Source: Eubacterium sp. (GTDB lineage Bacteria > Bacillota > Clostridia > Peptostreptococcales > Anaerovoracaceae). From it: a stretch of 50,098 nucleotides of DNA. This document shows positions 14,444 to 49,967 of the stretch, piece by piece. Each line of letters starts with the position of its first letter. Position 1 is the stretch's first letter. Both the position numbers and the translations under genes were made by a program. The notes beneath the pieces are model-generated. The model saw only the letters and a list, made by a program, of their open reading frames with translations. It made no database searches and was not told the DNA's origin. The stretch lies in NCBI GenBank assembly GCA_021769965.1, contig JAETRU010000030.1, forward strand, positions 1 through 50,098, in the 5' to 3' direction.

Positions 14444-14481
14444 TTGACACTAACACATTATTTTAGTAAAATTTAATGTGT
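14444..14481 (+). promoter_or_regulatory. abiE promoter overlapped by operator dyad
   Basis: TTGACA at 14444-14449 and TAAAAT at 14467-14472 are 17 bp apart. The inverted repeat ACACATTA (14453-14460) and TAATGTGT (14474-14481) covers the spacer and the -10 box, the arrangement needed for negative autoregulation by the antitoxin. Confidence 0.75.
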
Positions 14482-14508
14482 AATTGTCAAGAAAGCGAGG
14501 TGACAGCT

Positions 14509-15102
14509 ATGGCCGATAAAGAAACGATAAAAGAACTGTTGGAAGCATCTACAGGCGGAACAATCACCGCAAAACAGGTAACAGCCGCAGGACTGCACCG
14601 CAGCGTTTTGCAGGAACTTGTAAAATGTGGCGAGCTGTACCGTTATGGGCGCGGCATATATGTGCACAGTAATGCGTGGGAAGATGATTTGTATCTTTTG
14701 CAATGCAAATACGGGCGCGGCATATATTCCAATGATACTGCACTATATCTGCTGGGCTATTCCGACCGCACCCCGATAAAATACACAATGACTTTCCCAA
14801 AGGGCTATAATACCCCATCCTTGAAACAGGAAAGCGTTTTGATTAAGCGCGTTGTGCCGGAAAACTATTCCCTGGGTATAATTGAAATTAACTCACCTTG
14901 CGGCAATCCTCTTCGGATTTACAATTTAGAAAGAACATTATGCGATATTCTGCGCGGCAGTGGCAGCGACATTCAAATTATCACCGATGCAATGAAACGC
15001 TATGCAGCTTCCAAAGACAAAGACATTTACAAACTATTGCAGTATGCGAATCAGCTTCGTGTGAAGTCTAAAGTACAGCGTTATATGGAGGTACTGCTAT
15101 GA
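14509..15102 (+). CDS. abiEi: AbiEi-family antitoxin (type IV toxin-antitoxin)
   Basis: 197 residues. The N-terminal winged helix (residues about 1-60: IKELLEASTGGTITAKQVTAAGLHRSVLQELVKCGELYRYGRGIYV) is the AbiEi DNA-binding antitoxin domain. The rest (DTALYLLGYSDRTP, TMTFPKGYNTP, IYNLERTLCDILR) matches the AbiEi C-terminal domain that counteracts the toxin and helps binding to the operator. The start at 14509 follows a GCGAGGTGA site; an earlier in-frame start would fall in the operator. It overlaps abiEii by 4 bp (ATGA). It should repress its own promoter through the two dyads at 14400-14481. Confidence 0.9.
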   Translation: MADKETIKELLEASTGGTITAKQVTAAGLHRSVLQELVKCGELYRYGRGIYVHSNAWEDDLYLLQCKYGRGIYSNDTALYLLGYSDRTPIKYTMTFPKGYNTPSLKQESVLIKRVVPENYSLGIIEINSPCGNPLRIYNLERTLCDILRGSGSDIQIITDAMKRYAASKDKDIYKLLQYANQLRVKSKVQRYMEVLL

Positions 15103-15944
15103 TTACCAAAAATCCAATGCAGCTGAAAGCATTCATTAAAAAGAAAGCCAAGGAGAAAAATGTATCTGCCCAGCTCGTCATGCAGAACTATATGCTTGAA
15201 CGACTACTGGAACGAATTTCACTTTCACCATATAAACACAATTTCATTCTGAAAGGCGGTTTTCTCATTTCTGCAATCGTCGGCTTGGACACGCGGACCA
15301 CGATGGATCTAGATACTACCATCAAAGGCTTTACGCTTACCCATGAATCTATCCGCAATATTTTTACGGAGATTTGTGCTATAGATGTTGACGATGATGT
15401 AATATTTGAAATGGGGGATATTTCAGATATACGTGAGGGCGACGATTATCCCGGAGTTCGCGTAAGGCTGAACGCTAACTATACGCCGATTAGCATACCC
15501 TTAACCGTTGATGTCACTACCGGAGATATTATCACACCACGAGAAATCGAATACACATTTTCGTTGCTGTTCGATGACCGCAGCATCAGTATCCTTGCCT
15601 ATAACCTTGAAACAGTTTTAGCTGAGAAAATAGAAACGGTATTGTCACGCAGTACAGCCAATACCCGTCCGAGAGATTTCTATGATATTCACATTCTGTA
15701 TTCCCTGCGTGGAGCGGAGTGCAATAAAATGACACTTCGGGAAGCTCTGGAACGAACAGCAAATAAGCGGGGCAGCAGCAGAGTACTGACAATCTATCCG
15801 GACATTATTGCAGAAATCCGTGAAAGCGATACCCTTCGGAATTTCTGGAAGAGGTACCGGCGGGATTTTGACTATGTAAAAGACATTTCCTTTGACGATG
15901 CCTGCGATACTGTACAGCGTATTATGGATATTATTATGAAATAA
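15099..15944 (+). CDS. abiEii: AbiEii-family nucleotidyltransferase toxin
   Basis: 281 residues of the AbiEii/AbiGii family, GTP-binding or nucleotidyl-transferring toxins that arrest growth and can abort phage infection. The nucleotidyltransferase motifs are visible: KGGFLISAIVG near 52, TMDLDTTIKGF (DxD) near 70, the conserved ETVLAEKIETVLSR lysine region near 170-185, and NTRPRDFYDIHIL near 190-200. Translation is coupled to the antitoxin by an ATGA overlap. It is the last gene before the att copy at 16100, consistent with cargo of an ssrA-inserted element. Confidence 0.92.
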   Translation: MITKNPMQLKAFIKKKAKEKNVSAQLVMQNYMLERLLERISLSPYKHNFILKGGFLISAIVGLDTRTTMDLDTTIKGFTLTHESIRNIFTEICAIDVDDDVIFEMGDISDIREGDDYPGVRVRLNANYTPISIPLTVDVTTGDIITPREIEYTFSLLFDDRSISILAYNLETVLAEKIETVLSRSTANTRPRDFYDIHILYSLRGAECNKMTLREALERTANKRGSSRVLTIYPDIIAEIRESDTLRNFWKRYRRDFDYVKDISFDDACDTVQRIMDIIMK

Positions 15945-16335: not shown

Positions 16336-16695
16336 TGGTGGAGATGAGGAGAATCGAACTCCTGTCCGAAAGCATTTCCACAGGACTTTCTCCGAGCGCA
16401 GCTGGTGATTTAAATTTCGCTTTTCTGCCCGCCCATCAGCAGGCTGACAGAAACGCTATCCCGTAAGTCCCTTACGATACCGGGAACTCTCGCAAGGTTT
16501 TCCTGTATAATCGATGCCAGGTTTCCAGCCTACAGGTAAACTGGAGCTGACACGCGTGCTGCGTTAATTAAGCAGCTAATGCGAAATTATTATTCTTTTT
16601 AGCGTTTATATTTAAACGGCCACTTTTAACGTAGACTTGGCGACTACGGCTCGCTTATCCGGCTTCTACACCCCCGTCGAAACCTTTACACCCCC
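16336..16695 (-). ncRNA. ssrA: Transfer-messenger RNA (tmRNA)
   Basis: 360 nt. The 5' end GGGGGUGUAAAGGUUUCGACGG-type sequence (16695 downwards) pairs with the 3' acceptor CAUCUCC, and the encoded CCA is at 16336-16338. The T-arm is AGGAGUUCGAUUCUCCU. The tag reading frame lies at 16568-16603 and encodes AKKNNNFALAA, ending in UAA, a typical (A)..NNFALAA degradation tag. tmRNA rescues stalled ribosomes together with SmpB, encoded just upstream. The 3' end is the target of the island; an intact 3' end is kept here. Confidence 0.97.
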
Positions 16696-16764: not shown

Positions 16765-17118
16765 ATTGAGCAAATTCCGCTGTTTTCGTCTGTTTTGCTC
16801 AATCCATCCAACGGTCATCAGCTATAAATTGAGCATTTCTGCCTTAAAATCTCGATTTTGCTCAAGTCTACAGATCTCCATACCCGGGAAATTGAGCAAA
16901 TTCTGCTGTTTTTGTCTGTTTTGCTCAATCCATCCAACGATCATCAGCTATAAATTGAGCATTTCCACCTCAAAATCTCGATTTTGCTCAAGTCTACAGA
17001 TCTCCATACCCGGGAAATTGAGCAAATTCCGCTGTTTTCGTCTGTTTTGCTCAATCCATCCAACGATCATCAGCTATAAATTGAGCATTTCTGCCTCAAA
17101 ATCTTGATTTTGCTCAAT
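16765..17118. repeat. Array of six 39-bp inverted-arm elements with 24-bp spacers
   Basis: Elements start at 16765, 16828, 16891, 16954, 17017 and 17080, exactly 63 bp apart. Each is 39 bp with outer arms ATTGAGCA and TGCTCAAT or TGCTCAAG. Two interior types alternate: odd elements contain CCGCTGTTTTCGTCTG-like sequence, even ones TGCCTCAAAATCTCGA-like sequence. The spacers also alternate (CCATCCAACGRTCATCAGC and TCTACAGATCTCCATACCC types), so the array is also a 126-bp tandem repeat. It fills the gap between smpB and the ssrA promoter. No cas gene is nearby. Confidence 0.85.
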
Positions 17119-17196: not shown

Positions 17197-17661
17197 CTAC
17201 CAACGCTGCTTCATCGCTTTGTCGATCTTCCGGGCAGCGTCCTTTTTCGCCATGTCGTCCCGTTTATCGTAGTTTTTCTTACCCCGGGCCACTGCCAGCT
17301 CCATCTTGGCCCGGCCTTCCTCGTTGATGTACATGTTCAGCGGCACCAGAGTCATTCCCTTCAGCGTCGTATATCCGATCAGCTTTCGGATCTCCTGCTT
17401 GTGAAGCAGCAGCTTCCTCGCGCGCAGCGGATCCACATTGAACCGGTTTCCCTGCTCATAGGGGCTGATGTTCATGCCGTAGATCCACATTTCGCCTTTT
17501 TCGATCTTGGCGTAGCTCTCTTTGATGCTGACCTTGCCGGCCCGGACTGATTTGATCTCCGTTCCGGTAAGCACGATGCCTGCCTCATATACCTCTTCTA
17601 TAAAATAATCATGGCGTGCCTTTTTGTTGTTGGCCACCATTTTCTTTTCTCTCTTTGCCAT
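17197..17661 (-). CDS. smpB: SsrA-binding protein SmpB
   Basis: 154 residues, the usual length. SmpB binds the tRNA-like part of tmRNA and carries it into stalled ribosomes. Family landmarks: [27 protein letters not shown] at the start, [39 protein letters not shown], and the basic C-terminal tail [28 protein letters not shown] that enters the mRNA channel. The start at 17661 has a distant site; an ATG at 17640 is possible. It is the last protein gene before ssrA on the same strand, downstream of the signal peptidases. Confidence 0.95.
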
Positions 17662-17709: not shown

Positions 17710-18225
17710 TCACCATTGATATAATACCTTTCCTGCCAGGTCGTCCTCCCGCACCAGCCCTACCGTCTCACTGCGGCTGTCCGTGCTGACCGCCCGGTTA
17801 TCCCCGAGCACAAAAACATACCCGTCAGGCACGCTGATTTCATACATTTCTCCACTGATATCCTCAGTAAAGACATACTCTTCTTCAAGGGGCGCATTAT
17901 TGACATAGACACGGCCGCAGGTGATCATGACCCGATCGCCGCCTACGCCGATGACCCTCTTCATCATCCGCTTTCCTTCTCCTGTAGGCGCATACACCTG
18001 GCTGTCAAAGAAAACCACATCTCCGCGCCGCACATCAAAACCGGCCACACTGTCCAGACGTTCAAAGTCTCTGGTACTGCAACGGACCAGTACCCGCTGT
18101 CCCTGTTCAAAACCGGGCATCATGCTGCTGTCCGTCACCTGCGTGATCTGAAAAAACACCGCCAGCGCAGCGCCTCCGCCTATGCCCAATACTGCCGCCA
18201 GAAAAAAAGCGATCCATCTTTTCAT
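17710..18225 (-). CDS. Type I signal peptidase (third of three)
   Basis: 171 residues from the ATG at 18225, preferred because CAGGAGAG lies 8 bp upstream and it starts 2 bp after the preceding stop; an in-frame ATG at 18246 has no site. One N-terminal membrane helix is followed by the S26 protease fold. The catalytic serine is in SSMMPGF and the lysine in KRMMKRVIGVGG; the late box is GDNRAVSTDSR. It removes signal peptides on the outer face of the membrane. It is more divergent than its two neighbours: VRCSTRDF replaces the usual YLLVNKQ-type stretch, and the C-terminal YPF box is missing. Confidence 0.88.
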   Translation of the reverse strand: MKRWIAFFLAAVLGIGGGAALAVFFQITQVTDSSMMPGFEQGQRVLVRCSTRDFERLDSVAGFDVRRGDVVFFDSQVYAPTGEGKRMMKRVIGVGGDRVMITCGRVYVNNAPLEEEYVFTEDISGEMYEISVPDGYVFVLGDNRAVSTDSRSETVGLVREDDLAGKVLYQW

Positions 18226-18227
18226 TT

Positions 18228-18761
18228 TTAGTCTCTCCTGATCCATCCGATTTCATCAAATGGATAGAGCCGGAACACGACCCTGCCGACGATCTCCGAT
18301 TTTTTCACAAAGCCTACGGCCAGATCCCTGCTGTCCCTGCTGCCGGCGCGATTGTCCCCCATGCAGAAATAGGAATCCTCCGGCACCCGCACCGTATAAA
18401 CAGTTCCGTCAGTGTAACTGTCCTTGGTATAGGACTCCTTCAGCTCTTCTCCATTTATGTAGACTTTGCCGTTCTCCACGGATACCAGCTCTCCGGGCAG
18501 CGCCACGATTCGCTTGATCAGCTTCTTCTCCTGCCCTTCATCATCCTTCAGCTGGGACTGAAACACGACCACGTCGCCCCGCTTAGGCTTTCCGGTATGG
18601 ACATACGCCTGCTTGTTCACCAGAAGATAATCACGGTTCGAAAAATTCGGCTCCATAGAACTGCCGGATACCGACGTGGGTACCACAAACTGCAGGATCA
18701 CAAATGCCGAAACCATTGCAGAAACCAGAGCTTTAGCCCATTCCTTCCATTCTTCTCCCAT
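18228..18761 (-). CDS. Type I signal peptidase (second of three)
   Basis: 177 residues from the ATG at 18761 (MGEEWKEWAK), with AGGGG 6 bp upstream. Earlier in-frame starts overlap the preceding gene. One membrane anchor (about 10-28) precedes the S26 fold. The catalytic serine is in SGSSMEPNFSNRDYLL and the lysine in KKLIKRIVALPGE; then GDNRAGSRDSRDLAVG and the C-terminal RLYPFDEIGWI. It very likely cleaves exported preproteins. Its clear similarity to the upstream gene points to tandem duplication. Confidence 0.9.
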   Translation of the reverse strand: MGEEWKEWAKALVSAMVSAFVILQFVVPTSVSGSSMEPNFSNRDYLLVNKQAYVHTGKPKRGDVVVFQSQLKDDEGQEKKLIKRIVALPGELVSVENGKVYINGEELKESYTKDSYTDGTVYTVRVPEDSYFCMGDNRAGSRDSRDLAVGFVKKSEIVGRVVFRLYPFDEIGWIRRD

Positions 18762-18777
18762 ACGCGTCCCCTGTTCT

Positions 18778-19320
18778 TTACTCATCAAACGGATTTCTGA
18801 TCAGGCCGATCTTTTCAAACGGATACAGCCGTAGTACGACTTTTCCCACGATCTGATCCCGGCTGACACAGCCCACGCTCGGATCCCGGCTGTCTACACT
18901 GACCCTCCGGTTATCACCCATACAGAAATAAGAATTCTCCGGCACCACCAGATCCTGTACATCCGTACCCTGAGCTCTGTTGTTGCCCTCTTCGTTGATG
19001 TAATCCTCCTCCAGCGCTTTGCCGTTTATGTACACATCATCGTCAGTGATGTTGATCGTCTCCCCCGGCAGACCGATGATACGCTTGATCAGCATCTTTT
19101 CATCGCCGTTCTCCTGTACCAGCGACGAATGCACGACTACCACATCTCCCCGCTGCGGCGATCCGAACATCTTGTAGGACTGCTTGCTCACGAAGAGGTA
19201 ATCATTCTCGTAAAAATTCGGCTCCATGGAGCTCTGCTTCACCAGCGTCGGCTTGACAAAGAATATCACCGCCAGTGCGATGATCAGCGCCAGCGCAATA
19301 CTTTTGATCCATTCCTTCAT
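18778..19320 (-). CDS. lepB: Type I signal peptidase (first of three)
   Basis: 180 residues, one N-terminal membrane helix (about 5-22) and the complete S26 signal peptidase fold. The serine is in KQSSMEPNFYENDYLF, the lysine in EKMLIKRIIGLPGE, and the D box is GDNRRVSVDSRDPSVG, ending RLYPFEKIGLIRNPF. The start has AGGGGGA 6 bp upstream. It follows the pseudouridine synthase gene by 10 bp and is followed by two paralogues. The set may share or divide the secretion load; which is the housekeeping enzyme cannot be told. Confidence 0.92.
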   Translation of the reverse strand: MKEWIKSIALALIIALAVIFFVKPTLVKQSSMEPNFYENDYLFVSKQSYKMFGSPQRGDVVVVHSSLVQENGDEKMLIKRIIGLPGETINITDDDVYINGKALEEDYINEEGNNRAQGTDVQDLVVPENSYFCMGDNRRVSVDSRDPSVGCVSRDQIVGKVVLRLYPFEKIGLIRNPFDE

Positions 19321-25566: not shown

Positions 25567-25731
25567 ATTGAGCAAATCGGATCATTTCAGGGCATTTTGC
25601 TCAAGTCTGCTGACTTGCAGTGCGGTCGGATTGAGCAAATCAGATCATTTCAAGGCATTTTGCTCAAATCTGCTGACTTCCAGTGCGGTCGGATTGAGCA
25701 AATCGGATCATTTCAGGAGATTTTGCTCAAG
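25567..25731. repeat. Array of three 39-bp inverted-arm elements with 24-bp spacers
   Basis: Elements start at 25567, 25630 and 25693, exactly 63 bp apart. Each has arms ATTGAGCAAAT and ATTTTGCTCAA around TCGGATCATTTCAGGGC-like interiors. The spacers are TCTGCTGACTTGCAGTGCGG-like, 24 bp. Arms, element length and spacer length equal those of the array at 16765, whereas interiors and spacers do not match. The 285 bp before the array (25280-25566) holds only the nhaC promoter and leader. Confidence 0.85.
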
Positions 25732-49699: not shown

Positions 49700-49754
49700 A
49701 GTTGATTTCTGCCTGCTGATCTGTCGAGTCTCAAAATCTGCCGCTTCTGTCTGC

Positions 49755-49932
49755 AAAAAAGAAATTGTCCTTTTATAGCTCCGCAGGCTAGGAGAAGGCT
49801 GATCTGCGGCACATAAGAACTTCCGCTTATTGCTGCTTCCTTCCGGACCTGACAAGGTTCACGGCATCCCATTGCGCAGGACCCAAACCAAACCAGGCGA
49901 AGCTATAAAAGGACAATTTTCAATTCATCGTA
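49755..49932 (-). ncRNA. ffs: Signal recognition particle RNA (small type)
   Basis: The conserved apical domain is clear on the minus strand: GCCGUGAACCUUGUCAGG, UCCGGAAGGAAGCAGC and AAUAAGCGG (about 49810-49875). It binds Ffh and FtsY and directs membrane proteins. The hairpin is extended by a perfect 19-bp helix at the base (49762-49780 with 49901-49919), which is followed by six U (49760-49755) and so also acts as the terminator. The transcript is about 170-178 nt from the promoter at 49939-49967. The Alu domain of the long Bacillus-type RNA is not seen. Confidence 0.9.
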
Positions 49933-49938
49933 CATTCT

Positions 49939-49967
49939 ATTATATTGTTTTTGCGGGGAAATGTCAA
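49939..49967 (-). promoter_or_regulatory. Consensus promoter of ffs
   Basis: Minus-strand TTGACA (49962-49967) and TATAAT (49939-49944) with a 17-bp spacer, a perfect vegetative promoter suitable for a stable RNA. Confidence 0.88.

What the first reader, a model, noticed from the sequence alone, without database searches (positions are those of the whole stretch)
16765..17118. Six 39-bp inverted-arm elements in exact 63-bp register between smpB and ssrA
Each element is 39 bp with arms ATTGAGCA/TGCTCAAT(G) and each spacer is 24 bp, with no length drift over 354 bp. Two interior types alternate and two spacer types alternate. Conserved arms and lengths with different interiors do not fit CRISPR, plain tandem duplication or intrinsic terminators. 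63 bp is six turns of B-DNA, which would place all arms on one face, so a phased protein-binding array or a mobile hairpin family is possible. It lies in the region that drives tmRNA synthesis.
Basis: seen in the sequence. Interest (0 to 1): 0.75.

Follow-up and report, generated by a model that had tools for sequence, protein, structure and literature searches.

The report
Nuclease-paired helically phased palindrome arrays
The six repeats next to the tmRNA gene belong to a genome-wide set of evenly phased DNA sites that appears to be recognised by an uncharacterised nuclease-like protein encoded beside one of the arrays; related bacteria carry similar proteins, several of them beside an array with its own recognition sequence.

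Summary
In detail: six TTGAGCA-N23-TGCTCAA elements at 63-bp spacing between smpB and ssrA. That position is incidental: the genome (an Emergencia species) holds 69 exact copies in 16 arrays, plus one lone 47-bp variant; no other of 349 family genomes has an array. Spacings are multiples of about 10.5 bp; arms stay constant while interiors and spacers drift; A/T triplets sit at positions 8-10, 18-20, 28-30. This fits a DNA-binding array, not an RNA hairpin. An arm-blind scan found more families of this design here (TTGGGCT-N23, 29 exact copies) and in congeners, with other arms. One TTGAGCA array starts 32 bp after a gene for a 261-aa protein without a Pfam/NCBIfam family: a novel N-terminal domain plus a PD-(D/E)XK-like domain with invariant E, D, E, H. 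Paralogs often sit beside arrays with their own arms (strict detector: 12 of 35 loci, against 5 of 300 random windows); two ortholog pairs share arms. The family occurs in 113 of 165 Anaerovoracaceae genomes. The logic resembles REP/RAYT, but the enzyme is unrelated. Binding and cleavage are inferred, not shown; 23 of 35 loci fail the strict detector.

The parts
16766..16802 (.). element 1, TTGAGCA-N23-TGCTCAA, interior type A
16829..16865 (.). element 2, interior type B
16892..16928 (.). element 3, interior type A
16955..16991 (.). element 4, interior type B
17018..17054 (.). element 5, interior type A
17081..17117 (.). element 6, interior type B
25568..25604 (.). second array in the window, element 1
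25631..25667 (.). second array, element 2
25694..25730 (.). second array, element 3
17197..17661 (-). smpB (by eye); its 3' end lies 80 bp from the first array (context, not part of the system)
16336..16695 (-). ssrA / tmRNA (context, not part of the system)

Best explanation
The array is a set of specific DNA-binding sites for one member of an uncharacterised nuclease-like family whose gene lies elsewhere in the genome (G000:C69:42744-43529, locus L024:11745-12530), with a three-unit TTGAGCA array starting 32 bp after its stop codon. Proposed mechanism: the N-terminal helix - three strands - long helix domain of two protomers reads the two inverted 7-bp arms, whose starts are 30 bp (about three turns) apart. 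A/T blocks every 10 bp between the arms let the DNA bend or wrap. Neighbouring units at whole-turn spacings put all complexes on one face, so they can stack. The C-terminal PD-(D/E)XK-like domain can nick or cut at or near the site; break repair and unequal recombination then grow and homogenise each array locally, while the need to be bound keeps arms and phase. Paralogs have their own arm sequences and arrays. Shown: the arrays, phase, arm constancy, nuclease-array adjacency at a part of the loci, private arms per array-bearing paralog, shared arms in two ortholog pairs, invariant nuclease-like residues. Inferred: binding, cleavage, which domain reads the arms, how arrays grow, what the cell gains. 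I think it most likely works like a REP/RAYT pair, as an intragenomic nuclease-repeat partnership, rather than as a gene-specific regulator.
For: 69 exact units in the whole genome, 0 for the reversed pattern. Only 2 degenerate in-register units (one arm substitution each) within 150 bp of an exact F1 unit in 602 kb. Phasing: 46 distinct family-by-spacing values in 9 families, R = 0.83 at 10.5 bp, 0 of 2000 random sets as strong. A/T at 8-10, 18-20, 28-30 in F1 and F3. Family members beside F1, F2, F3 and TGACA arrays. Arm-blind strict detector: 12 of 35 nuclease loci against 5 of 300 random windows of two congeners (p = 1e-9) and 18 of 300 of own stretches chosen partly for arrays (p = 6e-6); without the 4 loci that led me to the family 8 of 31, p = 2e-6 against the 5 of 300. 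Near-diagonal arm-by-locus matrix. Two ortholog pairs share arms: TGCATAT (proteins 80% identical) and TGACA (62%); by pairwise identity the F1 protein's nearest relative in the set (45%) has TTGTGCA arms, one base from TTGAGCA. E159, D189, E204 and H205 invariant in 33 homologs; C-terminus matches PADLOC PDC-S68 profiles, best E 1e-28 to 1e-30; Foldseek's top, weak hits include a restriction-endonuclease-like protein and DrdV. A copy in another family of the class (G503) also has an adjacent array, period 53.
Against: No binding or cleavage data. 23 of 35 nuclease loci fail the strict detector; some of these have looser repeats (L290, L292, L293), others show none. The random control windows are not matched for intergenic content. 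In the tree the F1 protein groups first with L264 (TTCTAGAA arms) at weak support 80/72, and the TTGTGCA protein next, so the one-base-apart arms may be luck. The N-terminal domain matches no known DNA-binding fold; its best Foldseek hit is prefoldin, weak. Only one F1 array lies beside its nuclease; with 17 F1 places and several copies that single adjacency is not in itself improbable (rough estimate, no call), so the case rests on the whole set. Own TGACA arrays (L031, L036) had no family member in those loci. E-H stands where (D/E)-x-K is usual; K221 is only nearly invariant.
Confidence: 0.66

Rival explanations
1. The arrays are binding sites of an unidentified nucleoid or regulatory protein (BIME-like 3'-end elements that tune supercoiling or insulate transcription units); the nuclease is a neighbour or a parasite that settles near or targets such arrays.
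For: At 15 of 17 F1 places an ORF's 3' end lies 15-164 bp away (C7: 320 bp; C34: not readable at the contig end), so none of those 15 is a divergent gap (mechanical longest-ORF picks, read by eye). Phased A/T blocks suit bending; arms are kept while interiors drift.
Against: F3 clusters do occur between divergent ORFs (C7, C14a). Arms differ between species and families, and array-bearing nuclease loci have their own arms, shared by two ortholog pairs, which a host protein indifferent to the nuclease would not explain.
Confidence: 0.18
2. They are non-autonomous mobile palindromes (REP/REPIN- or MITE-like) spread by this or another transposase.
For: Multi-copy, intergenic, species-specific, several families per genome; REPs and BIMEs have such features (start of the abstract of PMC2817692 seen in the listing).
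Against: Interiors of different F1 arrays are nearly unrelated: identity 0.39 against 0.32 shuffled, so slightly but not much above chance. One IS200-like Y1 transposase copy in the genome. No hairpin-type pairing inside the arms. No empty site or target duplication could be tested.
Confidence: 0.1
3. RNA elements: the array is transcribed and folds into hairpins (processing sites, attenuators, terminators).
For: Seven single elements folded as RNA have z-scores of -1.6 to -3.9; an inverted repeat is expected to.
Against: Positions 10/28 are 99% A/T yet pair in 19% of F1 elements against 50% for shuffled partners; F3 positions 8-10 pair in 21-34% though nearly all A/T. Spacing follows the DNA helical repeat. 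No Rfam family at gathering threshold on the arrays.
Confidence: 0.03
4. Neutral tandem duplication, or part of a repeat protein.
For: 63 is a multiple of 3 and an open frame runs through the array; adjacent units in many arrays are about 80-100% alike.
Against: In W1, C7, C60 and C74 adjacent units are only 30-43% identical in the interior and 19-46% in the spacer yet keep perfect arms and 63-bp spacing. Spacings of 62 and 53 and the 47-bp element break any frame.
Confidence: 0.02

Closest known systems
REP / BIME repeats with RAYT (REP-associated tyrosine transposase)
   Same: Intergenic, species-specific, multi-family palindromic repeats, regularly spaced, with a dedicated nuclease gene beside one cluster and orphan clusters elsewhere (REP side partly recalled; abstract start of PMC2817692).
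   Different: The protein has a PD-(D/E)XK-like domain, not a Y1/HUH one. The genome has one IS200-like Y1 copy and no expansion. Elements are 7-bp arms 30 bp apart at whole-turn spacings, not compact hairpins; interiors are hardly shared between loci.
Neisserial dRS3/NIME arrays (recalled, no call)
   Same: Short inverted-repeat modules alternating with variable spacers in intergenic arrays.
   Different: No helical phasing or cognate PD-(D/E)XK gene known to me.
PADLOC candidates PDC-S68 / PDC-S69
   Same: The C-terminal ~120 residues match the end of these profiles.
   Different: Those profiles are 1,202-1,273 (S68) and 289 (S69) positions long; here a stand-alone ~260-aa protein with another N-terminal domain, multi-copy, often beside arrays.
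Iteron, parS or sopC type phased arrays (recalled)
   Same: Short sites in tandem for a dedicated protein.
   Different: Chromosome-wide dispersal, several specificities per genome, partner is nuclease-like.

Membership tests
REP/RAYT | associated Y1 (HUH) tyrosine transposase, PF01797 | tested here: not met
   one IS200-like copy in G000 (contig C18, which holds no listed F1 or F3 element), none in G005 or G002
REP/RAYT | imperfect palindromic hairpin as the recognised unit | tested here: not met
   inner positions A/T-rich but not paired
REP/RAYT | multi-copy extragenic repeats private to a lineage, one cluster beside the cognate gene | tested here: met
   for F1 the cognate assignment is itself an inference
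PD-(D/E)XK nuclease superfamily | fold and acidic active site | tested here: inconclusive
   E159, D189, E204, H205 invariant; PDC-S68 profiles E 1e-28; AF2 pLDDT 91.7; Foldseek hits to such folds but E no better than 0.02
CRISPR | conserved repeat with unique spacers | tested here: not met
   spacers duplicated within arrays, unit interior varies; Cas genes not searched for
Known RNA element (Rfam) | match to an Rfam family at gathering threshold | tested here: not met
   only tmRNA and SRP RNA in the window
BIME (gyrase/IHF binding) | binding of gyrase, IHF or Pol I | not testable with these tools
   -

The most novel reading that the evidence does not exclude
A previously undescribed class of chromosomal nuclease-repeat systems: a multi-copy family of two-domain nucleases in which many members have their own 7-8 bp arm sequence, written out in helically phased arrays beside the gene and, for some, across the genome, so that recognition specificity can be read from the genome and has diversified between paralogs. 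It could serve as an intragenomic selfish or domesticated pair, or as a nuclease held on chromosomal decoy arrays (its nuclease domain is shared with candidate phage-defence proteins).
Probability: 0.6. Interest if true: 0.9.

Novelty: categorically new. Interest (0 to 1): 0.84.

Why it matters
If right, this is a second, independently built solution to what REP/RAYT does: a dedicated nuclease kept with a genome-wide set of its own sites. It would give targets to a protein family found in 113 of 165 well-assembled Anaerovoracaceae genomes for which Pfam and NCBIfam gave no family, and hand experimenters several nuclease-site pairs from one genome (TTGAGCA, TTGGGCT, TTTCGTA and others) for working out a recognition code. 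It would also explain a class of intergenic repeats in gut Clostridia that is easily mistaken for neutral tandem repeats.

Tried and rejected
RAYT-type transposase: rejected, one Y1 copy. RNA hairpin: rejected by the lack of pairing at A/T positions. tmRNA-specific regulation: rejected, 17 places and none seen at smpB of relatives. Repeat protein: rejected, frame-breaking spacings and diverged units. Longest-ORF picks do run through some arrays from the side (C7, C34, C60, C78b); I read these as overcalled starts. Phage or plasmid origin: the double-unit pattern had 0 hits in viral contigs and 0 in genome contigs (the tool may leave out the own genome); protein homologs in viral contigs (1), plasmids (6) and phage records (3) are distant or partial. 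The F4 pattern was written with the wrong gap and says nothing. The F2 exact-37 pattern gave 0 because F2 has a 22-bp gap and an extra half-site. N-terminal domain: no convincing fold match; single-member hits to Arm-DNA-bind_3 (E 0.0035; 0.0056) and DUF6788 (E 0.29) are leads only. Paper searches (listings and starts of abstracts only; no paper opened) showed nothing describing such a pair; subscription papers are not held.

Rows dropped and limits of counts: one search looked at all 38 nuclease loci then held; one search left out 3 of them (L281, L283, L288) as cut by contig ends; L283 has an ATTGACA repeat. In one search I chose 23 loci and 14 arms, so that matrix shows specificity, not an unbiased rate; the rate is that. 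The 300 control windows come from G011 and G005 stretches at random places and are not matched to gene ends; the 300 own windows (18 positive) come from stretches partly fetched because they hold arrays. smpB loci of the genus in the same call: 1 of 10 positive, the own one. One search uses 16 arrays; the lone 47-bp element is left out, as are lone in-register half-sites seen at the ends of two arrays (L019:6810, L045:14689). One search was limited to genomes at least 90% complete; its row counts include fragments. One search's nine families were chosen, with 0-2 arm mismatches allowed.

Full report
Observation. The window holds six exact TTGAGCA-N23-TGCTCAA elements at 16766-17117, each 63 bp from the next, between smpB (by eye) and ssrA. 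A second, three-unit array of the same kind is at 25568-25730. With exact arms the shuffled window gives none.

Genome-wide. In the own genome (2.99 Mb, 82 contigs) the exact 37-bp element occurs 69 times, the reversed pattern 0 times; allowing gaps of 15-35 adds one 47-bp element. They form 16 arrays of 2-6 exact units plus the lone 47-bp one. I read all 17 places as intergenic; at C7, C34, C60 and C78b a longest-ORF pick runs through or into the array. Of 349 family genomes searched, own included, three others have one match each and none an array. By SmpB likeness and by matching contig lengths and coordinates the genome belongs with Emergencia; G005 is E. timonensis SN18 and G011 Emergencia sp. 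1XD21-10. Downstream of smpB in 11 congeners no such array is seen; seven of them could be read to tmRNA (by eye); 0 of 78 named smpB loci have one by the strict detector.

Anatomy. Inverted half-sites alternate 30 and 33 bp apart; the exceptions (23, 12, 40, 75 and 32) are shifts of about one, two or four turns, or of one base. Arms are nearly constant: within 150 bp of an exact unit only two degenerate in-register units were found in 602 kb, both with CTGAGCA, at L016:241 inside the C7 array and L029:9923 at an array edge; two arrays end in a lone half-site (L019:6810, L045:14689). A/T fills positions 8-10, 18-20 and 28-30. Adjacent units are alike in many arrays but only 30-43% identical in the interior in W1, C7, C60 and C74, where arms and 63-bp spacing still hold. 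Inner A/T positions do not pair as a hairpin would: 10/28 pair in 19% of elements against 50% shuffled. Between arrays, interiors are nearly unrelated (0.39 against 0.32 shuffled).

More families. Scans blind to arm sequence found further families. In the own genome: TTGGGCT-N23-AGCCCAA (F3), 29 exact copies genome-wide, none in 12 congeners, 0 reversed, plus 23 near copies with 1-3 arm substitutions; GTTCGGCA arrays (F2); TGACA arrays (F4); TTTCGTA arrays beside the C42 gene and two dispersed TTTCGTA-N23 pairs. In G011: TTGTGCA, TGCATAT, CTGACAA, GCACCAT, GCGCCAT; in G005: GCGTAAC-N23. In 207 kb of G002 none stood out. Over nine families the 46 distinct spacings cluster on multiples of 10.5 bp (R = 0.83; 0 of 2000 random sets reach it).

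The protein. A gene beside an F2 array and a gene beside an F3 array proved homologous (46.5% identity), and tblastn with these two over the fetched DNA put a third member directly before an F1 array and a fourth, in G011, next to a TGACA array. The F1 member is L024:11745-12530, G000:C69:42744-43529, 261 aa; its array starts 32 bp after the stop codon. All 13 Emergencia genomes searched match: 11 rows, fragments included, in the own genome and in G011, one in G002. In the family, 113 of 165 genomes at least 90% complete and 36 of 55 genera match, up to 18 rows in one genome; in the phylum sample 27 of 398, own included, many only over the nuclease domain in larger proteins or over the N-terminal domain alone. 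Pfam and NCBIfam gave no consistent family; the C-terminal part matches PADLOC PDC-S68. In 33 homologs E159, D189, E204, H205 are invariant and K221 nearly so. The AlphaFold2 model (pLDDT 91.7, pTM 0.61) has helix - three strands - long helix, then an alpha/beta domain. Foldseek's top eight hits, all weak (E 0.02-0.35), include a restriction-endonuclease-like protein, DrdV, R2 and Card1, which I know (recalled) as PD-(D/E)XK-type folds; the N-terminal domain (pLDDT 93.7) gives only weak prefoldin hits.

Pairing. In 600 bp on either side, 12 of 35 loci carry a strict repeated inverted-arm array, against 5 of 300 random windows of two congeners (p = 1e-9) and 18 of 300 of array-rich own stretches (p = 6e-6); leaving out the four loci that led me to the family, 8 of 31 (p = 2e-6). 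Arm-by-locus counts are near-diagonal (arms chosen). In the own genome six of seven intact copies examined have their own repeated arms, though C62 and C51 fail the strict detector; the seventh, C38, has two GCGCCAT half-sites 248 bp apart and lies in an unresolved clade with the G012 copy, whose arms are GCGCCAT. Orthologs of G007 and G011 share TGCATAT and TGACA arms. By pairwise identity the F1 protein's nearest relative in the set (45%) has TTGTGCA arms; in the tree L264 with TTCTAGAA arms groups closer at weak support. Paralogs 50-57% identical can have quite different arms. Of three copies fetched from outside Emergencia, one from another family of the class (G503) has an array of period 53, one (G099) has four CCCAATAAC half-sites, one (G337) a single inverted pair.

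Reading. I conclude that the array is most likely one of many site clusters of a nuclease-like protein encoded elsewhere in the genome, as REPs relate to RAYTs, but with an unrelated enzyme and a helix-phased site. The DNA anatomy and the partial pairing are shown; binding, cutting, which domain reads the arms, and the benefit to cell or element are inferred. Searches of open papers showed no description (listings only).

Noticed in passing
L017:3808-4080, L031:7878-8210, L130-L138 (own genome): F3 clusters (TTGGGCT) often look mirror-symmetric: AAA-flanked units on one side and TTT-flanked units on the other of a central spacer that looks alike between clusters (by eye).
   Followed up: partly
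L030:1-178 (own), L081:5537-5787 and L094:481-714 (E. timonensis): A different tandem family, period 90-101, with varying inverted arms (GGAAACATT, AGAACCATT) and a shared ACGGCGTTGCCGC core in both species.
   Followed up: no
L031:1403-1510 and L036:12408-12520 (own): TGACA arrays of the type paired with a family member in G011 and G007, here without one in the fetched locus: possible orphan arrays.
   Followed up: partly
phylum sample, e.g. G476:C1:919832-920104, G415:C16:227948-228223: ORFs of about 100-110 aa matching only the N-terminal domain (profile positions about 3-89); possibly related to DUF6788 (recalled; E 0.29 for one member).
   Followed up: no
window 14476-15944: Two adjacent ORFs that look like an AbiEi/AbiEii toxin-antitoxin pair just beyond ssrA (judged by eye, not searched).
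   Followed up: no
window 17710-19320: Three consecutive signal-peptidase-I-like genes next to smpB (by eye).
   Followed up: no
window 49753-49954 (-): Bacterial large SRP RNA.
   Followed up: no
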